Assembly (NCBI GenBank): GCA_934547065.1
Contig: CAKTEF010000003.1
Location: 1-64,000 of the forward strand
From: an uncultured Faecalibacterium sp.
GTDB lineage: Bacteria; Bacillota; Clostridia; Oscillospirales; Ruminococcaceae
Length of the DNA: 64,000 nt
Reading direction: 5' to 3'
This document shows, piece after piece, positions 1 through 33,835 of this stretch; positions within the stretch are counted from its first letter, which is position 1; every line of letters starts with the position of its first letter. The position numbers and the translations under genes are program-made. The notes below the pieces were generated by a model, which was not told the DNA's origin, searched no databases, and saw only the letters and a list, made by a program, of their open reading frames with translations.

Positions 1-360
1 ATGACCATGGAGATCAAGGGCCGCAATCTGGTGGACGGCCTGCCCAAGAACATCGTCGTCCACTCCGAGGATGTGCGTGAGGCCCTGCTGGAGTGCCTGG
101 TGAAGATCACCAGCGCCATCAAGGAAACGCTGGAGCGCACCCCGCCGGAGCTGAGCGCCGATATCATCGACCACGGCATTACCCTGACGGGCGGCGGCGC
201 TCTGCTGCGCGGCCTGGATCAGCTGATCCAGAGCGAGACGGGCATCGACGTTCATGTGGCGGAGGATCCGCTGGACTGCGTGGCCAAGGGTGCAGGCGCT
301 GTGCTGGACCATGTGGATGTCCTGCACGATGTGCTGGATACCGACGGCGCACACATGTGA
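1..360 (+). CDS. mreB: Rod-shape determining protein MreB, C-terminal part (cut by window edge)
   Basis: This is the last 119 residues of the bacterial actin MreB, which forms membrane-bound filaments that direct lateral wall synthesis. The frame is open from base 1, so the real start lies outside the window and the ATG at base 1 is an internal codon. The actin-fold phosphate/adenosine motif LTGGGALLRGLD is at about residues 62-73, and the GRNLVDGLPK segment near the start is typical of MreB. It ends in TGA at 358-360 and is followed directly by mreC, mreD and a class B PBP, the usual elongasome order. MreB rather than the paralogue Mbl is chosen because of the mreC/mreD neighbours; Mbl remains possible. 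Confidence 0.93.
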   Translation: MTMEIKGRNLVDGLPKNIVVHSEDVREALLECLVKITSAIKETLERTPPELSADIIDHGITLTGGGALLRGLDQLIQSETGIDVHVAEDPLDCVAKGAGAVLDHVDVLHDVLDTDGAHM

Positions 361-366
361 TAAAGC

Positions 367-398
367 GCGCGGATGGCTCTGGCTGTCCGCGCTTTTTT
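367..398 (+). terminator. Terminator-like hairpin between mreB and mreC
   Basis: A perfect 7-bp stem (GCGCGGA at 367-373 with TCCGCGC at 386-392) is followed by six T residues. It fits an intrinsic terminator, yet it sits 7 bases after the mreB stop and upstream of the mreC ribosome binding site. It would therefore reduce rather than end transcription into mreCD-PBP2. Confidence 0.7.
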
Positions 399-417
399 GC
401 AACCGGAGGATAACCCC

Positions 418-1248
418 TTGAAAGATTTTTTTGATACCTGGAAATTCAGGATCCTGGTGGGCATCGCGGTGTTCCTGGTGGGCATTATGGCCTATGCCGG
501 TGCCAATGGCCGCCTGACGGCTGCCCCGCAGGAGCTGCTGAGCGTCGCGGCTGCCCCATTCCAGAAAGCTGCGGCGGTTGTCAGCGGAAATGTGGCGGCC
601 CTGTGGGAAAAATATACGAACATCGACGCGGTGATGGAGGAAAACGAGACGCTCCGCACCGAGAACGCCGAGCTGCGCCAGCAGATGGTGGATTACGACC
701 GCATCAAGGCTGAGAATGAGGCGTATAAGGCACTGGAAACGATCCAGAGCCAGCGCCCGGAGATGAGCTGCCTTTCCGGCTTTGTCATCGGCCGCGATCC
801 GCTGGATTCGTTCTGGGGCTTTACGCTGGACCGCGGCACGCTGGACGGCGTGGCCGTGGACGATGCGGTGATCAGCGATGAGGGCTACCTGCTGGGCATG
901 GTGGTGGAGGCCGAAAGCACCAGCTGCAAGGTCATGACCATCCTGCATCCAAACTTCAACGCAGCGGCTGTGGTGTCCCGCACCCGGGACAACGGCATCG
1001 TCACCGGCAGCTCGGATTACGCCGCCGACGGCCTGTGCGTGCTGACCAATCTTGCCCGCAACACCCTGACGGAAAAGCACGATCAGGTCGTGACCACCGG
1101 CCTGGGCGGGGTGTTTCCGCCGGATGTCCTGGTGGGCGTGGTGCAGGAGCTGGTGCCGGAAGTCAGCGGCAAATCGACCATTGCCGTCATCAAGCCGGGC
1201 GCAGATCCCCGCACCGTGCGCCATGCATTCATCATTACCGATTTCTGA
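418..1248 (+). CDS. mreC: Rod-shape determining protein MreC
   Basis: MreC is a bitopic membrane protein that links MreB filaments to PBP2 outside the membrane. The start is taken as TTG 418 because GGAGG lies at 404-408; an in-frame ATG at 373 falls inside the terminator hairpin. The 276-residue product has an N-terminal membrane helix (about residues 10-28), a coiled coil rich in Glu/Leu (about 70-110, ENETLRTENAELRQQ) and the beta-rich MreC domain containing GFVIGRDP and GLGGVFPPDVLVG. Length is normal for the family. It sits 12 bases upstream of mreD. Confidence 0.93.
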   Translation: MKDFFDTWKFRILVGIAVFLVGIMAYAGANGRLTAAPQELLSVAAAPFQKAAAVVSGNVAALWEKYTNIDAVMEENETLRTENAELRQQMVDYDRIKAENEAYKALETIQSQRPEMSCLSGFVIGRDPLDSFWGFTLDRGTLDGVAVDDAVISDEGYLLGMVVEAESTSCKVMTILHPNFNAAAVVSRTRDNGIVTGSSDYAADGLCVLTNLARNTLTEKHDQVVTTGLGGVFPPDVLVGVVQELVPEVSGKSTIAVIKPGADPRTVRHAFIITDF

Positions 1249-1260
1249 GGAGGCCCTGGT

Positions 1261-1794
1261 ATGGAATCACGCCGCAAACGCAGCCGCAGCCAGCTGTTCA
1301 AATGGTGCTGCTATGCGCTGCTGCTGCTCCTGTGTACGGTTTTACAGACCACGCCGGGGCTGTTCCAGTTCGGGGCGGTCAAGCCGCTCTGGCTGCTGCC
1401 GCTGGCATTGGCCGTTGCCGTGTTCGAGGGCGAGTTTTCCGGGCCCGTGTTTGGCACGGTGTGCGGTCTGATGTGGGACTGGCTGGCCGGGCGCACCGTG
1501 GGCATGCTGGCTTTGGAGCTGCTGCTGCTCTGCTTTGGCATTGCCGTGGTGATGCAGCTCTATTTCAAAAGCTCTGTGGTGAATTTTACCCTGATCGCCG
1601 CCGGTGCGGCCCTGCTGGTGCTCACACTGGACTGGCTGTTTTTCTACGATATGCCGGGTTACAGCGGCTCTGCGGCCCGGTATCTGGCGTTCGTGCTGCC
1701 TACGGCGGTGCTGACCATCCCGGTCTGCATCCCGCTGTTCTGGGCCGTGCGCCGCATCCATGAAGATTTCAAGATCGACAACGGCGTGGTGTGA
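1261..1794 (+). CDS. mreD: Rod-shape determining protein MreD
   Basis: This is a 177-residue, very hydrophobic protein with about five membrane segments, placed between mreC and PBP2 as in most rod-shaped Firmicutes. MreD is a multi-pass component of the elongasome. A GAGGAGG-type ribosome binding site lies about 10 bases upstream of ATG 1261. Sequence conservation in this family is low, so the call rests on size, topology and position. The basic N terminus (ESRRKRSRSQ) would stay in the cytoplasm. Confidence 0.87.
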   Translation: MESRRKRSRSQLFKWCCYALLLLLCTVLQTTPGLFQFGAVKPLWLLPLALAVAVFEGEFSGPVFGTVCGLMWDWLAGRTVGMLALELLLLCFGIAVVMQLYFKSSVVNFTLIAAGAALLVLTLDWLFFYDMPGYSGSAARYLAFVLPTAVLTIPVCIPLFWAVRRIHEDFKIDNGVV

Positions 1795-1821
1795 GCGTGC
1801 CCTGCGCCGAAAGGAGAATGA

Positions 1822-4032
1822 ATGAACCGAGACGAACACAAAACGGCGGTACGGCGGATGATGGTCCTGATCGGGGCTGCCTGTGTGCTGATGGCCCTGT
1901 ATGGACTGCGCCTGATCTTTTTGCAGCTGGTCAAAGGGGAAGATTTCAAAGCACAGGCCACCAATACCACGGACTATAAGTTCACGGTGACAGCGGCCCG
2001 CGGCGATATCGTGGACAGCAAGGGCAGCCGGATCGCCACCAGCATTACGGGCTACAACGTGGTGCTGAACAAGCTGCTGATGGGGGATCAGGACCTGGAT
2101 GCCATGCTCCAGAAGATCGTGGAGCTGCTGCGCGAAAACGGGGAAAGCTGGAACGATACCCTGCTGATCGGTCAGCCGGATGCGGCCGGGAACTATACCT
2201 TTACGGCGGAGCAGGGCAGCTCCAAAGACCAGAAAGCCCTTTCCGCCATGAAAGAAAACCTGGGATTACAGCAGTATGCCACTGCCAATGATGTGATGGA
2301 AAAGCTGGTGGAGGATTACAGCCTTTCGGATGTTTCGCCGGAATGGCAGCGGGTGCTGGGCGGCATCCACTACGAGATGCAACTGCAGGCCTTTTCCAAC
2401 GTGAACAACTTCATCATGGCCGAAAATGTCAGTGAAAAGACCGTGGCTACCATCAAGGAACACAGCCTTTCGCTGCCGGGCGTGGAGATCGTGGAAACGA
2501 GCACCCGCAGCTACGAGCAGAGTACCGTGCTGCCCCATGTGCTGGGCCGCGTAGGAAAGATCACAGCCGAAAAGTGGAAAGTGACCGATGAAAACGGCCA
2601 GGTGACCTACCCGCTGCGGGAAAAAGGCTACAACATGAACGATATCATCGGCATCTCCGGCCTGGAATCCGCCTATGAGGACGAACTGCGGGGCAAGGAC
2701 GGCGTGGAGACCATTACCCGCAACTCCGACGGCGTGATCGTGAACACGGCCCTGACCACTGTGCCGGAGCCGGGGCACACCGTCCAGCTGACCATTGACA
2801 GCAGCTTCCAGAAAGCCGTGGACAAGGCACTGGCGGAGAACATCGACATGATCAACCGGGTGTACAACACCGGCAATATGAAAGCGGCCGCCGGTGCGGC
2901 GGTGGTGCTGGACGTAAAGGATGGCAGCGTGCTGGCGGCTTCCAATTACCCCAGCTTTGACCAGAACCTTTACGCCACCCAGTACAGCGAATACAGCTCG
3001 GATGCCAGCCTGCCGCTGTTCAACCGCGCATTGCAGGGCCTGTATACGCCGGGTTCCACATTCAAACCGGCGGTGGCGGTGGCTGCACTGGACAGCGGCC
3101 TTATCAACCAGTATTCCACGGTGTTCTGCAACGGTGTGTACACCTATTATAAGGGATACAGCCCCCGCTGCACCCGCCACGGCCACAGCGGCAACATTGA
3201 CGTGGTCACGGCCATCAAGTGGAGCTGCAACATCTTCTTCTACGATGTGGGCCGCCGCCTGACCAGCGATGTCTACGATGCCTACGCCTATAAGCTGGGC
3301 CTGGGCCAGCGCACCGGCGTGGAGGTCAGCGAGGCGCTGGGCCACCTGACCACCAAGAACGACTCCAACTATATCGACTCGCTGGACATCCAGGCCGCCA
3401 TCGGCCAGGGCAATACCGTGGTCACGCCCATCCAGCTGGCCACCTATGCGGCTGCACTGGCCAACAACGGCGTGCGTTACCGCACGCATTTTGTCAAGGC
3501 CATCCTGGACTCCAACACCGGCGAGGTGCTGAAAGAGACGCAGCCGGAGGTCATGGATGTGATCGAGGATACCGGCAATACGTTTGAGCTGGTGCGGCAG
3601 GGCATGAAACAGGTGCCCAGCACCATCACGGGCAAGATCAGCAGCTACCCGTATGCCATTGCCTGCAAGACGGGCACGCCCCAGCGCAGCGAGACGTATG
3701 CGCCGGGCAAGCACTATCTGAACGCTATGATGATCGCCTACCTGCCTGCGGACGATCCGCAGATCGCCATTGGCATCACCATTGAGTATGGCGGCTACGG
3801 TGCCCGCACCGGAGACCTGGTGGTGGATATTGCCAACGCATATTTCGCCATGCAGAACGGCACCCTGAACGAGGACGGCACCATCGGCCCGCAGGAGGCT
3901 GTGGACGAAGCGGACACGGCACAGGATACGGCGGGGACCCAGGAAGCAGCGGATCCCGCTGCGGACGGCCAGGGTACACAGACGACTGCCGACGGTACGG
4001 TCCCGGCCCAGGGCGGGGATGCGGCGGCCTGA
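1822..4032 (+). CDS. mrdA: Penicillin-binding protein 2, class B transpeptidase of the elongasome
   Basis: The protein cross-links peptidoglycan during side-wall growth. A single N-terminal membrane anchor (about residues 9-32) is followed by a dimerisation domain (ARGDIVDSKG) and a transpeptidase domain. The active-site motifs are complete: STFK with Ser412, SCN near Ser468 and KTG at Lys616. At 736 residues it is longer than a minimal PBP2, mainly because of a low-complexity Ala/Glu/Thr/Gly tail of about 50 residues after the catalytic domain. AAGGAG precedes ATG 1822. A RodA partner is not in the window. Confidence 0.94.
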   Translation: MNRDEHKTAVRRMMVLIGAACVLMALYGLRLIFLQLVKGEDFKAQATNTTDYKFTVTAARGDIVDSKGSRIATSITGYNVVLNKLLMGDQDLDAMLQKIVELLRENGESWNDTLLIGQPDAAGNYTFTAEQGSSKDQKALSAMKENLGLQQYATANDVMEKLVEDYSLSDVSPEWQRVLGGIHYEMQLQAFSNVNNFIMAENVSEKTVATIKEHSLSLPGVEIVETSTRSYEQSTVLPHVLGRVGKITAEKWKVTDENGQVTYPLREKGYNMNDIIGISGLESAYEDELRGKDGVETITRNSDGVIVNTALTTVPEPGHTVQLTIDSSFQKAVDKALAENIDMINRVYNTGNMKAAAGAAVVLDVKDGSVLAASNYPSFDQNLYATQYSEYSSDASLPLFNRALQGLYTPGSTFKPAVAVAALDSGLINQYSTVFCNGVYTYYKGYSPRCTRHGHSGNIDVVTAIKWSCNIFFYDVGRRLTSDVYDAYAYKLGLGQRTGVEVSEALGHLTTKNDSNYIDSLDIQAAIGQGNTVVTPIQLATYAAALANNGVRYRTHFVKAILDSNTGEVLKETQPEVMDVIEDTGNTFELVRQGMKQVPSTITGKISSYPYAIACKTGTPQRSETYAPGKHYLNAMMIAYLPADDPQIAIGITIEYGGYGARTGDLVVDIANAYFAMQNGTLNEDGTIGPQEAVDEADTAQDTAGTQEAADPAADGQGTQTTADGTVPAQGGDAAA

Positions 4033-4108
4033 TGGGCGCAGCACCGTTTTTCTTGGAGAAAATTGGAACAAAATTCCGAAAAAATCGTAAGCATTGTCCC
4101 AAAAACGG

Positions 4109-4137
4109 TTGTAAAACCAGAGAAACTGTGATACTAT
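4109..4137 (+). promoter_or_regulatory. Sigma-A promoter of mgsA
   Basis: TTGTAA (4109-4114), a 17-base spacer and TACTAT (4132-4137) with an extended TG at 4129-4130. The start of transcription would be about 45 bases upstream of mgsA. Confidence 0.7.
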
Positions 4138-4189
4138 GATATATGCAAGAAATTGGCCTGCATGGGCAGAGCAAAGGAGAGGTTGACCG

Positions 4190-4597
4190 ATGACGATTGC
4201 ACTGATTGCGCATGACTCCAAAAAAGAGCTGATGGTTCAGTTCTGCACGGCGTATTGCCGGATTTTGAGCCAGCATAAATTGGTGGCCACCGGGACAACG
4301 GGCAAGATGATCGCCGAAGCGACCGGACTGCAGATCCAGCGCTTCCTGGCGGGGGTACAGGGCGGCGACCAGCAGATCGCTTCCCGCATCGCATGCAACG
4401 AGGTGGATCTGCTGCTGTTCTTCCGGGATCCCATCAACGCAAAGCCCAGTGAGCCCAACGAGATGACGCTGCTGCGCCTGTGCGATGTGCATAATATCCC
4501 GCTGGCTACCAACATTGCCACGGCTGAGGTGCTGATCCACGGCCTGGAACGCGGCGACCTGGATTGGCGTGATATCGTCCACCCGCAGAACAGCTGA
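4190..4597 (+). CDS. mgsA: Methylglyoxal synthase
   Basis: The enzyme converts dihydroxyacetone phosphate to methylglyoxal and phosphate, a bypass that frees phosphate when sugar phosphates pile up. All family motifs are present in 135 residues: IAHDSKK at the N terminus, ATGTTG phosphate loop (33-38), GGDQQIAS with the catalytic Asp60, FFRDP (77-81) and the [13 protein letters not shown] segment with His101. The gene has its own promoter and is closed by a strong terminator, so it is a single-gene unit. Many Clostridia keep mgsA next to mre/rod genes, so the position is not unusual. Confidence 0.95.
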
Positions 4598-4611
4598 AAC
4601 TGAAGAACAAG

Positions 4612-4652
4612 CAAAGCCCCCTGCACGGCATCCGCTGTGCAGGGGGCTTTTT
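4612..4652 (+). terminator. Intrinsic terminator after mgsA
   Basis: A 14-bp GC-rich stem (AAAGCCCCCTGCAC at 4613-4626 with its complement at 4637-4650) is followed by a run of T. The A-rich left flank also allows it to work for the minus-strand gene that ends at 4681. Confidence 0.85.
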
Positions 4653-4680
4653 GCATCCGGAGCGGCGGGTTCCGGGATCG

Positions 4681-5208
4681 TCAGAATTTCAGGTCCGCAG
4701 CCATCTCGTCCAGATCGGCGGGCGAAAAATCGCCCAGCGGCAGGATCAGGCGGGCCAGCGTCTCCTGCGGCAGCGCGGCCAGCCGGGCACTCTCGTCGCT
4801 GGCAGCATCGGCGGCGGGGCAGAGCACACAGGTCCCGTCGGCACCCGTCTCCACGCGGGCGTGGTGGCCGGTGGCAATGTACTGGATGCCCAGCCGGTCT
4901 GCCGCAGCCAGCAGGGCGGGGAAGCGCAGGTCGGCTCCGGCGGCATCCTCCGCTGCCAGCTGGCTTGCCAGCTCGCTGGCGTTCAGGGTCACGCACTCAA
5001 TGCCCAGGGCCTTGGCGGCCTGCTTTGCGGCATCCACCGCAGCATCCTCGGCGGCCAGGCGCACCACGGCACCCACCACGGCAAAGCCCTGCTGCTGCAA
5101 AATGCGCACGGCAGCCCGGCAGCCCCGGCCGCCGCAAAGGCCTACCAGGACTTTGTCCTGCTGTTCATAGGTATCGAACCCGTTCCCGGGCAGAAAAGTA
5201 TCGCTCAT
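4681..5208 (-). CDS. Truncated, degenerate MnmA-like PP-loop protein
   Basis: The 175-residue product aligns by eye with the N-terminal half of MnmA, the tRNA 2-thiouridine synthase. It has a Rossmann strand KVLVGL, an alternating helix/strand pattern and the segment [11 protein letters not shown] (110-120), which matches the YIATGHYAR motif of MnmA. The ATP-binding SGGxDS motif is replaced by CGGRGC (25-30), losing both Ser and Asp, and the C-terminal half with the second catalytic Cys is missing. It is therefore unlikely to thiolate tRNA. ATG 5208 overlaps the rnhA stop as ATGA, and GGAGGA lies just upstream, so the two genes are translationally coupled. The coding frame is intact, so it is not treated as a pseudogene. 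Confidence 0.7.
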
Positions 5209-5669
5209 CGTCCCTGTTTTCCTCCGTATGCCTGACTTTGTGCCACAGCCAGCTGGTCGCAGCGTTCGTTTTCCGGGTGGCCCGCATGGCCCTTGACCCA
5301 GACGTAGGTGAGCTTGTGCCGGGCTTCCTGTTCCAGCGCCTGCTCCCACAGGTCGGGGTTCAGGGCGGGGGAACCGTCGGATTTTTTCCAGCCCCGGCGC
5401 TTCCAACCCTTGGCCCAGCCCTTTTCCAGCCCGTTGATCACATACTGGCTGTCAGAGCACAGGCGTACTTCGCACGGCTCCTTGAGCTGGCGCAGCGCCT
5501 CGATAAAGGCGGTAAGCTCCATCCGGTTGTTTGTGGTGCTGGCAGCCCCGCCGCTGAGCTCTTTCTCGTAGACTTTGCCGTTAAAACGGTAGCGCAGCAC
5601 CGCGCCCCAGCCGCCGGGGCCGGGGTTGCCGCTGCACGCGCCGTCGGTGTAAACTTCAACCTGTTTCAT
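5205..5669 (-). CDS. rnhA: Ribonuclease HI
   Basis: RNase HI cleaves RNA in RNA-DNA hybrids. The 154-residue product has the whole DEDD active site: Asp9 in [10 protein letters not shown], Glu51 in NRMEL, Asp73 in CSDSQYV and Asp138 in NERCDQLA. The basic handle [12 protein letters not shown], which grips the hybrid, is also present, as in E. coli RNase HI. It has its own minus-strand promoter and is followed without a gap by the MnmA-like gene. Confidence 0.96.
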
Positions 5670-5706
5670 GCATTTCTCCCGGAACTTGAATTTTTGAACT
5701 GCTTCT

Positions 5707-5736
5707 ATATTAGAGCGGGATTCCGGCTTCTGTCAA
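5707..5736 (-). promoter_or_regulatory. Sigma-A promoter of rnhA
   Basis: Read on the minus strand: TTGACA (5736-5731), an 18-base spacer and TAATAT (5712-5707). It lies about 40-65 bases upstream of the rnhA start. Confidence 0.7.
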
Positions 5737-5779
5737 GAGGAAAGTGCATAATTTCCCGCCCGCCTGCCAAACCTTGGAA

Positions 5780-5808
5780 TTGACAAAAAGAACAAGAAAT
5801 ACTATACT
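5780..5808 (+). promoter_or_regulatory. Strong sigma-A promoter of the rnj leader
   Basis: TTGACA (5780-5785), a 17-base spacer and TATACT (5803-5808). Transcription would begin near 5815, about 260 bases ahead of the RNase J start codon. Confidence 0.85.
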
Positions 5809-5814
5809 GTTTGT

Positions 5815-6050
5815 AACAAAATGCGTATAGGGACACACCACAGAGGTGTGTTCGGGCCACGCAGATGCCGCGCCGCGGTCGCATCGAACAGATGGACTGA
5901 CAGGGTGCAAAGGGCGCTGCAACGGCCGAACAGGCGCTTTCAGAGCGCTGCAACGAAAATTCTATACGATGGTTTCGATGGAGGCAGCGGAGCGCTTTTG
6001 CTGCTTCCTCACGCAGACAGGCAGCCCGGTTTTGGGTGTGCCTGCGTTTT
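5815..6050 (+). ncRNA. Structured leader or small RNA upstream of RNase J
   Basis: The transcript from the promoter at 5780 folds into a branched structure on paper. A closing helix pairs 5824-5830 with 5962-5968 (CGTATAG/CTATACG). Inside it are three hairpins: 5833-5839/5845-5851 (ACACACC/GGTGTGT), 5864-5868/5881-5885, and 5934-5938/5944-5948. A further hairpin spans 5981-6010 and an intrinsic terminator 6018-6050. The region has no plausible reading frame. The layout is that of a riboswitch or other cis-regulatory RNA, or of an independent terminated small RNA; I could not match it to a known class. Confidence 0.55.
6018..6050 (+). terminator. Terminator in the rnj leader (possible attenuator)
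   Basis: CAGGCAGCCC (6018-6027) pairs with GGGT and TGCCTG (6034-6037, 6039-6044) with one bulged base and is followed by CG and four T. It lies only 14 bases before the RNase J ribosome binding site, so read-through is needed to express rnj. Confidence 0.65.
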
Positions 6051-31474: not shown

Positions 31475-32194
31475 ATGGCAACTCCCCACATCAGCGCTGA
31501 AAAAGGCGATTTCGCAAAAACCGTTCTGATGCCCGGCGACCCGCTGCGGGCCAAGTTCATTGCGGACACGTTTTTGCAGGATGTCCGTCAGGTCACGGGG
31601 GTCCGCGGGATGCTGGGCTTTACCGGCACCTACCAGGGCCGCCCCATCAGCGTGATGGGCAGCGGCATGGGCATGCCCTCCATCGGCATCTATTCCTACG
31701 AGCTGTTCAAGTTCTATGATGTGGAGAACATCATCCGCATCGGCTCCGCCGGCAGCTACACCGACAAGGCAAAGCTCTTTGATGTGGTGCTGGCCACCGG
31801 TGCCGTGAGCGAGAGCAATTATGCCCGTGTCCAGAGCGGCTTTGAGGGCGACATCGCCCTGCCCAGCCAGAGCCTGAACGAAAAGCTGCGCGTCTCGGCG
31901 GCCAAGCAGGGCATCCCCCTGATCGAGGGCAACATCCACTCCTCGGATGTGTTCTACCGCCAGCCTTCCGACGCAAAGCCCACTTACTGGGAAACACTGC
32001 GGGACGAGCGCGGATGCCTGTGTGTGGAGATGGAGAGCTTTGCCCTGTTTGCCAATGCAAAAGTCCTGGGCAAGAACGCCGCCTGCGTGCTGACCATCTC
32101 CGACAGCTTTGTTTCCCCGGAGATCACCACCGCAGAGCAGCGCCAGAACAGCTTTACGAACATGATGAAAGTGGCGCTGGGCGCAGAGTACTGA
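31475..32194 (+). CDS. deoD: Purine-nucleoside phosphorylase, DeoD type
   Basis: DeoD splits purine (deoxy)nucleosides with phosphate into base and ribose 1-phosphate. The family blocks TPHISAEKGDFAKTVLMPGDPLRAK, GSGMGMPSIGIYSYEL, RIGSAGSY and VEMESFAL are complete, and the catalytic Asp is in TISDSFV. 239 residues is the usual length for the hexameric form. It passes ribose 1-phosphate to DeoB. A near-perfect terminator follows immediately. Confidence 0.97.
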   Translation: MATPHISAEKGDFAKTVLMPGDPLRAKFIADTFLQDVRQVTGVRGMLGFTGTYQGRPISVMGSGMGMPSIGIYSYELFKFYDVENIIRIGSAGSYTDKAKLFDVVLATGAVSESNYARVQSGFEGDIALPSQSLNEKLRVSAAKQGIPLIEGNIHSSDVFYRQPSDAKPTYWETLRDERGCLCVEMESFALFANAKVLGKNAACVLTISDSFVSPEITTAEQRQNSFTNMMKVALGAEY

Positions 32195-32205: not shown

Positions 32206-32241
32206 AAAAAGGGTTGTTGTCACACGACAACAACCCTTTTA
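32206..32241. terminator. Bidirectional terminator after deoD and the toxin gene
   Basis: A perfect 15-bp stem (AAAAGGGTTGTTGTC at 32207-32221 with 32226-32240) with an ACAC loop, A-rich before and T-rich after. It serves deoD on the plus strand and the toxin-antitoxin unit on the minus strand. Confidence 0.92.
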
Positions 32242-32245
32242 TGTT

Positions 32246-32509
32246 TTAAGTGTCACTATAATGACCGAAACAGGATGCGATAATGATATTGCCGTCCTGC
32301 TCTTTATAAACAATGCGGTGCGTATCGTTGATGCGGCGGCTCCACCATCCACTCAAATCACCTTTTAAGGGTTTGGGTTTTCCAATGCCCTCGTAGGAGT
32401 TCCGCTGAATGTCTTTCAGGAGCGTGTTGATCCGCTTCAGCAGCTTTTTGTCCTGCGTCTGCCAAAGACAATAATCATTCTATGCATTTTCTTTCTAAAC
32501 TAAATTCAT
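32246..32509 (-). pseudogene. YoeB-type mRNA interferase toxin gene with two in-frame TAG codons
   Basis: Translation of the minus strand from ATG 32509 gives an 87-codon frame starting MNLV*KENA*NDYCLWQ and ending IIIASCFGHYSDT. It lines up without gaps with YoeB, whose N terminus reads MKLIWSEESWDDYLYWQ. The two stops at codons 5 and 10 (both TAG) sit exactly where YoeB has Trp. Everything after codon 10 is intact, including Glu40, the WWSRRI block and the C-terminal His-Tyr, which correspond to the YoeB catalytic residues. The ATG directly abuts the antitoxin stop codon. The simplest reading is a toxin silenced by nonsense mutation; amber read-through is an alternative. Confidence 0.85.
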
Positions 32510-32776
32510 TTAATCTGCCTCCATAAGTTCGTGCTCAGTGAGCGGGATTTTACCTGTATCGATGTCATTGGTGATCTGGCGGAGATGATTGATGTTGCTT
32601 TCCGAGTAGAACGGATCGGCGGAAACCTCAAAGGGAATGCGGTGCTCCCGGGAAACTTTTTTGGCGAAAATCGTGAATGCCGTTGTCATAGAAAGTCCCA
32701 TCTCGGCGCAAACTTCTTCCATGCTGCGTTTCAGGGCTGGGTCCATCCGGAAGTTCACATTGACTGCATTTGCCAT
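32510..32776 (-). CDS. RelB/DinJ-family antitoxin
   Basis: The 88-residue protein starts at ATG 32776, with GGAGGTG about 8 bases upstream; a longer upstream extension of the frame lacks a ribosome binding site. The N terminus (VNVNFRMDPALKRSMEEVCAEMGLSMTTAFTIFAKKV) is the ribbon-helix-helix DNA-binding and dimerisation domain of DinJ/RelB antitoxins, and the C-terminal part would wrap the toxin. It directly precedes the YoeB-like gene, the normal order. Base composition is AT-richer than in the neighbouring genes, suggesting transfer. Confidence 0.9.
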   Translation of the reverse strand: MANAVNVNFRMDPALKRSMEEVCAEMGLSMTTAFTIFAKKVSREHRIPFEVSADPFYSESNINHLRQITNDIDTGKIPLTEHELMEAD

Positions 32777-32835: not shown

Positions 32836-32849
32836 GAACTTTCATTACA
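32819..32849. promoter_or_regulatory. Inverted repeat over the toxin-antitoxin promoter, probable antitoxin operator
   Basis: TGTAATGAAA (32819-32828) and TTTCATTACA (32840-32849) are perfect 10-bp arms separated by 11 bases, about two helical turns between centres. The spacer contains the -35 element, as expected for autoregulation by a ribbon-helix-helix antitoxin. Confidence 0.7.
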
Positions 32850-32874
32850 CAATAAATGAACAACGAGAAATCTC

Positions 32875-32903
32875 TTGAAGAATTTGAGAACACGCCGTAT
32901 AAT
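32875..32903 (+). promoter_or_regulatory. Promoter of the GNAT gene
   Basis: TTGAAG (32875-32880), a 17-base spacer and TATAAT (32898-32903), divergent from the antitoxin promoter. Confidence 0.8.
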
Positions 32904-32928
32904 TGAAGTGCAAAAGAGGGGATGAAAG

Positions 32929-33372
32929 ATGAACGACTTTCAACCAAATCAGGATATCCGCCTTGTACCTTATTACCCAGCCTATGAAATTGCCCTTCCG
33001 TGGTATCAGGACGCAGAACTGTGCCATCAGGTAGATCATCAGAATCGCATTTATGACCTGTCTATCCTGAAAAATATGTACCAGTATCTGGATCGTCATG
33101 GTGATTTGTTCTACATTGAATATAAGGGCATTCTGTGCGGAGATGTATGCTTGCAGACAAGCGGAGAAATTTCGATTGTGGTCTGCAAAGAGTATCAGAA
33201 TCGGCACATTGGGAGAACAGTGATTGGAAAGATTCTTGCACTGGCAAAAGAGAAGAAGTATCCGCGATGCTATGCGGAAATTTATTCTTTCAACAAGCAG
33301 TCCCGCAAAATGTTTGAAAGGATAGGATTTGTTCAGAAAGACGCAGAAACGTTTGTTTATACCTTGGAATGA
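32929..33372 (+). CDS. GNAT family N-acetyltransferase
   Basis: This 147-residue protein fits the GNAT fold: a beta strand with ISIVVCKEYQNRHIGRTVI carrying the acetyl-CoA pyrophosphate motif (QNRHIG), then AEIYSFNKQSRKMFERIGF, the classic C-terminal Asn/Phe motif. The acceptor is unknown; RimI/phosphinothricin-type small-molecule or protein acetylation are both possible. GAGGGG precedes ATG 32929. It is AT-richer than the genes on either side, runs divergently from the antitoxin and ends 13 bases before cdd, so cdd may be read from its promoter. Confidence 0.85.
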   Translation: MNDFQPNQDIRLVPYYPAYEIALPWYQDAELCHQVDHQNRIYDLSILKNMYQYLDRHGDLFYIEYKGILCGDVCLQTSGEISIVVCKEYQNRHIGRTVIGKILALAKEKKYPRCYAEIYSFNKQSRKMFERIGFVQKDAETFVYTLE

Positions 33373-33385
33373 AAAGGAGGCCCCT

Positions 33386-33835
33386 ATGACCAATCTGACT
33401 TTAGACGAAAAGAAAGCCCTGATCCGCATGGCGCTGAAGGCCCGCGAGGGAGCCTATGTGCCGTACTCGGATTTTATGGTGGGCGCTGCCCTGCGGGCTG
33501 AGGACGGCCGCATCTTCACCGGCTGCAATGTGGAAAACGCTGCTTTCACCCCCACCAGCTGTGCCGAGCGGACGGCCCTGTTCAAGGCCGTGAGCGAGGG
33601 CGTGACCCGCTTCACCGATATTGCCATCGTGGGTTCCCGCCGCGGCGAGGTGAACAAACAGATCACGTCGCCCTGCGGGGTGTGCCGCCAGGCACTGTTT
33701 GAGTTTGGCGGGCCGGAGCTGAACGTCATCATGGCAAGAAGCCCGGAGGACTTTCTGGAGCGCAGCATGGACGAGCTGCTGCCGTTCGGCTTTGGTCCCT
33801 CCAATGTGGCGGGCAACAAGGCCGTGGAGGAATAA
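33386..33835 (+). CDS. cdd: Cytidine deaminase
   Basis: Cdd converts cytidine and deoxycytidine to (deoxy)uridine. The zinc ligands are Cys59 in the CAE motif, with catalytic Glu61, and Cys97 and Cys100 in PCGVC. The 149-residue size is that of the homotetrameric form. AAGGAGG (33374-33380) sets the start at ATG 33386. Together with the importer and pdp downstream it would channel cytidine to uracil and ribose 1-phosphate. Confidence 0.96.
   Translation: MTNLTLDEKKALIRMALKAREGAYVPYSDFMVGAALRAEDGRIFTGCNVENAAFTPTSCAERTALFKAVSEGVTRFTDIAIVGSRRGEVNKQITSPCGVCRQALFEFGGPELNVIMARSPEDFLERSMDELLPFGFGPSNVAGNKAVEE

What the first reader, a model, noticed from the sequence alone, without database searches (positions are those of the whole stretch)
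32246..32509. YoeB toxin gene with two in-frame TAG codons exactly at conserved tryptophan positions
The minus-strand frame reads MNLV*KENA*NDYCLWQ..., against MKLIWSEESWDDYLYWQ in YoeB (recalled). Both TAGs fall on Trp codons (TGG to TAG, one transition each), with no frameshift and no other damage. The residues matching YoeB Glu46, Arg65, His83 and Tyr84 remain. One nonsense mutation is enough to kill a toxin; two of the same kind at two Trp codons, with an intact catalytic core, need explaining. Options: toxin silenced while the antitoxin is kept; amber suppression giving conditional or low-level toxin; or sequence drift after transfer.
Basis: partly seen in the sequence, partly recalled or inferred. 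Interest (0 to 1): 0.78.

Follow-up and report, generated by a model that had tools for sequence, protein, structure and literature searches.

The report
Broken YoeB toxin beside intact antitoxin
In a gut Faecalibacterium, the toxin half of a common bacterial toxin-antitoxin pair is broken by two stop codons and has also lost a catalytic residue, while the antitoxin gene remains open; this is most likely an ordinary decayed gene, not evidence of a new genetic code.

Summary
In detail: the minus-strand frame 32246-32509 is a YoeB toxin gene with TAG at codons 5 and 10, directly behind an open RelB/DinJ antitoxin gene (32510-32776). One key detail of the finding is wrong. The catalytic core is not intact: residue 46 is Lys, where 137 of 138 aligned database relatives have Glu and one has Asp. 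Two close relatives at the same site between deoD and cda carry open toxin genes with Trp at both positions. Against the closer one, the window's toxin has as many amino-acid-changing as silent codon differences (11:11; intact copies 3:34 and 5:40). The changes cluster in about 100 bases covering the antitoxin tail and the toxin start. TAG is a rare but used stop in two related genomes, RF1 is present in the genus, and no tRNA-CUA was found in one complete related genome; the window's own genome is not held. Three database proteins show Gln at both stop positions. They are probably the same allele translated with another code, so the double-stop form seems to circulate, but their DNA could not be read. 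Best reading: a decayed toxin with an orphan antitoxin. Programmed read-through is unlikely.

The parts
32246..32509 (-). yoeB/txe toxin pseudogene (frame of 87 codons plus TAA)
   Evidence: translation; PF06769 E 1.2e-31 and TIGR02116 E 1.4e-27, both for the piece after the second stop
32495..32497 (-). in-frame TAG, codon 5 (Trp in most relatives)
32480..32482 (-). in-frame TAG, codon 10 (Trp in most relatives)
32372..32374 (-). codon 46: Lys in place of the catalytic general base Glu46
   Evidence: role of Glu46 from PMC3814384 passages
32510..32776 (-). RelB/DinJ-family antitoxin gene, open, 88 aa; its TAA stop abuts the toxin ATG
   Evidence: PF04221 E 6.9e-11; TIGR02384 E 2.7e-15, over cut-off
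32477..32578 (-). divergent patch: antitoxin tail (codons 67-88 and stop) and toxin codons 1-11; 21 window-only changes at 79 comparable sites against 6 at 331 in the rest of the module
31475..32194 (+). deoD, purine-nucleoside phosphorylase: left neighbour of the module
32929..33372 (+). GNAT acetyltransferase gene, found with the module in L002 and not found in the other 79 deoD loci as held
33386..33835 (+). cytidine deaminase gene: right neighbour

Best explanation
This is a decayed (pseudogenised) YoeB ribosome-dependent mRNA-interferase gene in a chromosomal Faecalibacterium relB-yoeB module; its antitoxin is left as an orphan. Translation of the toxin should stop after 4 residues. Even if read through, the product would lack the general base Glu46. 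Loss of the toxin relieved selection on the rest of the toxin gene and probably on the toxin-binding tail of the antitoxin. The antitoxin's DNA-binding half stays conserved, so the protein may still bind its own promoter or related ones. A short recombination tract from an older decayed allele may have brought the stops into an otherwise L081-like module. Shown: the stops, Lys46, open syntenic relatives, the clustering, and the raised ratio of amino-acid-changing to silent differences. Inferred: no toxin activity, antitoxin expression, the recombination tract, and the order of events.
For: Two in-frame TAGs and Lys46. Open syntenic toxin genes: L081, 94.1% identical over 1201 bases, and L002. 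Codons 1-10 of related toxin genes: 17 of 18 rows have Trp at both positions and one has Phe at both (L083 and L002 are one locus), 22 of 25 rows have Trp at both, two have Phe/Trp, and one (L113, register uncertain) has Leu/Met; no stop in these ten codons in any of the 43 rows, some of which repeat places. Window against L081: 11 amino-acid-changing to 11 silent codon differences, versus 3:34 (L081-L087, p 0.0004) and 5:40 (L081-L002, p 0.0014). Antitoxin codons 66-88: 7:3 against 0:8 and 1:13 (p 0.004 and 0.002); codons 1-65: 1:2. The only in-frame ATG, GTG or TTG after codon 10 is codon 52, past residue 46. RF1 over cut-off in 28 of 31 genus genomes. TAG ends 11 of 254 and 5 of 119 sampled ORFs in two relatives. 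No CUA tRNA in a complete relative.
Against: Downstream of codon 11 the frame has no further stop or frameshift in 76 codons, and the ratio there alone (4:9 against 3:32) is only weakly raised (p 0.07). Three database proteins show Gln at both stop positions in an otherwise open frame; if their DNA has CAG, open relatives of this allele exist. The changes are not spread evenly as in simple decay (10 of 14 window-only toxin changes fall in codons 1-11; p about 6e-7). 11 of the 14 are G-to-A on the toxin strand and none is C-to-T (p 0.006), which I do not explain. Against a tract limited to the patch: P0001 shares Ser38 and Asn61 with the window, outside the patch, where L081, L087 and L002 differ.
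Confidence: 0.87

Rival explanations
1. The two TAGs are read as sense (amber suppression or reassignment), giving low-level or conditional toxin.
For: Three database proteins carry Gln at both positions. TAG is a rare stop here: 0 of 47 window ORFs, though this is not unusual at the 16 of 373 rate seen in relatives (p 0.13). The frame after codon 10 stays open.
Against: RF1 over cut-off in 28 of 31 genus genomes; TAG ends ORFs in both relatives sampled; no CUA tRNA in a complete relative. The product would carry Lys46. In one search the other alignments with stops lie in antisense or out-of-frame ORFs or in extensions upstream of the start, by my reading of their coordinates, so no second interrupted gene was seen in the part of the window that those five loci cover.
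Confidence: 0.03
2. The database Gln codons are real CAG: a Gln-bearing open toxin allele exists and the window's TAGs arose from it, or the reverse.
For: P0001, P0002 and P0006 are open over 87 residues, keep Glu46 and come from five contigs by the table's count.
Against: Of 138 other aligned relatives none has Gln at position 10 and one has it at position 5. The database seems to hold proteins called with other codes on short contigs: P0122 has Trp-Trp where the DNA of L002 has two TGA, as table 4 would read it (the DNA of P0122 itself was not seen). The longest contigs of the three are 557, 1087 and 777 bases.
Confidence: 0.2
3. Sequencing or assembly artefact, such as a chimera of two alleles joined at the conserved middle of the module.
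For: The mosaic pattern; several YoeB database hits from short contigs look like chimeras of two alleles (by eye).
Against: The antitoxin tail recurs exactly in P0121 and in the partial P0184, and the toxin start recurs in similar form, with Gln at the stops, in P0001, P0002 and P0006, so the patch itself seems to exist in other samples.
Confidence: 0.05

Closest known systems
Txe/YoeB family toxin of type II modules (E. coli YoeB, PDB 2a6q; PF06769, TIGR02116)
   Same: Sequence family, length, place behind the antitoxin, Arg65, His83 and Tyr84 retained.
   Different: Two nonsense codons at conserved Trp positions and Lys at the general-base position 46.
RelB/DinJ-family antitoxin annotated beside Txe/YoeB on plasmids of Clostridia (Flavonifractor plautii NZ_CP095095, Butyrivibrio proteoclasticus NC_014390)
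   Same: Same pairing, by the annotation under the match; gene order there was not inspected.
   Different: The window's partner toxin is broken and its antitoxin tail has diverged from close relatives.
Orphan antitoxins beside degraded toxins (the review PMC7354431 names a parE pseudogene in Caulobacter and a frameshifted YacB in Shigella; passages read)
   Same: Antitoxin gene kept, cognate toxin non-functional.
   Different: Here the damage is two nonsense codons plus loss of a catalytic residue, with changes clustered at the antitoxin/toxin junction.

Membership tests
Txe/YoeB toxin | Profile match over the curated cut-off | tested here: met
   PF06769 108.9 bits against cut-off 27; TIGR02116 95.7 against 51.8, for the piece after the second stop
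Txe/YoeB toxin | Open reading frame from start to stop | tested here: not met
   TAG at codons 5 and 10; no alternative ATG, GTG or TTG between codon 1 and codon 52
Txe/YoeB toxin | General base Glu46 | tested here: not met
   Lys46; Glu in 137 and Asp in 1 of 138 relatives
Txe/YoeB toxin | Arg65, His83, Tyr84 | tested here: met
Txe/YoeB toxin | Ribosome-dependent mRNA cleavage | not testable with these tools
   needs expression
Orphan antitoxin (RelB/DinJ) | Open antitoxin frame matching its family | tested here: met
Orphan antitoxin (RelB/DinJ) | No functional cognate toxin | tested here: met
   by sequence only; other YoeB copies in the genome could not be checked
Stop-recoded genome | TAG absent as terminator, suppressor tRNA present, RF1 lost | tested here: not met
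   Tested in relatives only: TAG used, no CUA tRNA in one genome, RF1 over cut-off in 28 of 31. In the window alone 0 of 47 ORFs end in TAG, which is inconclusive

The most novel reading that the evidence does not exclude
The double-TAG allele is a stable, circulating form (window plus the sequences behind P0001, P0002, P0006 and P0121) in which the junction of antitoxin tail and toxin start was rewritten together, with a strand-biased G-to-A cluster. Its TAGs would be translated in some strains, giving a conditional toxin, or the allele would be kept as an antitoxin-only form selected for its altered tail.
Probability: 0.08. Interest if true: 0.6.

Novelty: new member of a known kind. Interest (0 to 1): 0.2.

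Why it matters
Mostly it closes a lead: two nonsense codons at conserved Trp sites looked like programmed silencing, but the catalytic residue is gone too. If the same double-stop allele is confirmed in independent strains, it would be a tidy natural case of how an antitoxin evolves once its toxin is dead, with its DNA-binding half kept and its toxin-binding tail set free.

Tried and rejected
Reinitiation downstream: rejected, the only in-frame ATG, GTG or TTG after codon 10 is codon 52. Recoded genome: rejected for the relatives tested. DNA of the Gln-bearing relatives: not found. Two pattern scans of viral contigs gave nothing; the toxin-piece search there gave 6 loci, best 72% identity, five with Trp at both positions and one with Phe/Trp; the antitoxin search gave one locus at 54%; pattern one search found no match in the 128 loci then held. 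Metagenome scans were not allotted, so none was tried. A DNA search of 396 family genomes, drawn evenly from a larger group, gave 19 with a match; the best after the two Faecalibacterium genomes G012 and G002 was 69% identical. A wider ORF filter picked antisense ORFs and was replaced by the one, which still contains at least one antisense ORF (32845-33429), so the stop counts are approximate. In one search the clustering figure was computed for 11 of 14; the right count is 10 of 14, redone. Literature: five searches (listings) and passages of three papers (PMC3814384, PMC7354421, PMC7354431); I saw no report of this locus in these.

Full report
What is there. The window is Faecalibacterium: its DeoD is 95% identical to that of Faecalibacterium sp. 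I4-3-84. On the minus strand, directly after the TAA of a RelB/DinJ-family antitoxin gene (32510-32776; PF04221 and TIGR02384 over cut-off), lies a frame of 87 codons whose part after codon 10 is a clear YoeB (PF06769 E 1.2e-31). Codons 5 and 10 are TAG. A GGAGG stands eight bases before the toxin ATG, so the start signal looks usable.

Position 46, the general base in E. coli YoeB (PMC3814384, passages read), is Lys in the window. It is Glu in 137 and Asp in 1 of 138 database relatives. These 138 are what remained of 155 candidates (P0001-P0120 and P0241-P0275) after keeping 80-90 aa, dropping P0021 and P0046, and setting aside P0001, P0002 and P0006. Arg65, His83 and Tyr84 are kept. So the frame is damaged at the catalytic centre too. 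The paper's figure legend calls Glu46 required for activity; elsewhere it speaks of compromised activity of a Glu46 mutation, so Lys46 alone need not mean zero activity.

Relatives. Of the 80 loci fetched around deoD, only L002 (F. prausnitzii APC923/61-1) shows the module in the stretch held, between deoD and cda and with a GNAT gene; its toxin frame is open. A 5.9 kb faecal record filed as 'Bacteriophage sp.' (MT837931, L081) is 94.1% identical over 1201 bases and carries the module with an open toxin at the same site. Among 31 Faecalibacterium genomes, 11 have a YoeB match, 15 places in all; 14 of these have no stop in the matched part and one has a TGA. One search read the ten codons before the matched part in 18 rows (17 loci): 17 rows have Trp at both positions, one has Phe at both. 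One search did the same for 25 rows from other loci, of which at least L104, L105, L124 and L125 repeat places already read: 22 have Trp at both, two Phe/Trp, one Leu/Met in an uncertain register. None of these rows has a stop in the ten codons.

Selection. Between the window and L081 the toxin differs at 11 codons that change the residue (the two stops counted) and 11 that do not. Between intact copies the numbers are 3:34, 5:40 and 6:28 (p 0.0004 and 0.0014 for the first two). After codon 11 alone it is 4:9 against 3:32 (p 0.07), suggestive only. In the antitoxin, codons 66-88 show 7:3 against 0:8, 1:13 and 1:13; codons 1-65 show 1:2. This fits loss of the toxin freeing the toxin-binding tail of the antitoxin while its DNA-binding half stays conserved. 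The role of the two halves is general knowledge of RelB/DinJ antitoxins, not tested here.

A patch. At sites where L081, L087 and L002 agree, the module has 27 window-only changes; 21 fall at 79 sites of the antitoxin tail and toxin codons 1-11, and 6 at the other 331. Of the 14 in the toxin, 11 are G-to-A on the toxin strand and none C-to-T (p 0.006 given the G and C at risk). The antitoxin-tail changes show no such bias. Another antitoxin, P0121, has exactly the same last 22 residues but differs elsewhere, so the tail belongs to an allele that exists in other samples. A short recombination tract from an older, decayed allele would account for the patch. Against a tract limited to it, P0001 shares Ser38 and Asn61 with the window outside the patch, where the three intact relatives differ; Asn61 is seen in only 3 of the 138 relatives. 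The strand bias is left unexplained.

The Gln-bearing database proteins. P0001, P0002 and P0006 begin like the window's toxin and have Gln at exactly the two stop positions. Their longest contigs are 557, 1087 and 777 bases. Another database protein, P0122 (longest contig 532), has Trp-Trp where the DNA of L002 has two TGA after the antitoxin, as table 4 would read it, so the database seems to hold proteins called with other codes on short contigs. I take the three as the same double-TAG allele read with TAG as Gln, at about 75-80%. If right, the double-stop allele is older than this strain and not a sequencing error. P0001 keeps Glu46 but has residues at positions 28 and 32 not seen there in the 138 relatives, which also fits relaxed constraint.

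Is TAG read through? RF1 (TIGR00019) is over its cut-off in 28 of 31 genus genomes. TAG ends 11 of 254 ORFs sampled from 400 kb of G001 and 5 of 119 from G002; 0 of 47 in the window has p 0.13 at that rate. In G001, Infernal found 65 tRNA matches. ARAGORN on the stretches fetched around them found 63 distinct tRNA genes, counted with their flanks (51 distinct sequences), none with anticodon CUA; every stretch fetched for a tRNA held at least one. The window's own genome is not held.

Verdict. A decayed YoeB gene with an orphan antitoxin: ordinary in kind, as the review PMC7354431 describes for other toxins (passages), with an unusual clustering of the damage.

Noticed in passing
L081 (MT837931.1) 1-5949: A record filed as 'Bacteriophage sp.' (UNVERIFIED) aligns with the Faecalibacterium window over nearly its whole length (two blocks, 81% and 91% identity): it looks like a bacterial contig mislabelled as phage.
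   Followed up: partly
window 1-64000; samples of G001 and G002: TAG is a rare terminator in Faecalibacterium: 0 of 47 (window), 11 of 254 (G001), 5 of 119 (G002) ORFs by a GC-frame filter.
   Followed up: partly
32477-32578: Window-only changes cluster at the antitoxin/toxin junction; those in the whole toxin are mostly G-to-A on one strand (11 of 14, none C-to-T).
   Followed up: partly
L091 (G009:C25:8785-9003): Another YoeB copy in the genus has one in-frame TGA, so a stop inside a YoeB gene is not unique to the window.
   Followed up: no
32206-32240: A GGGTTGTTGTC/GACAACAACCC inverted repeat flanked by A and T runs lies between deoD and the toxin gene, probably a two-way terminator (seen by eye).
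   Followed up: no
P0122: Database protein with Trp-Trp where a relative's DNA has a double TGA after the antitoxin: a caution for using protein databases to argue about stop codons.
   Followed up: partly
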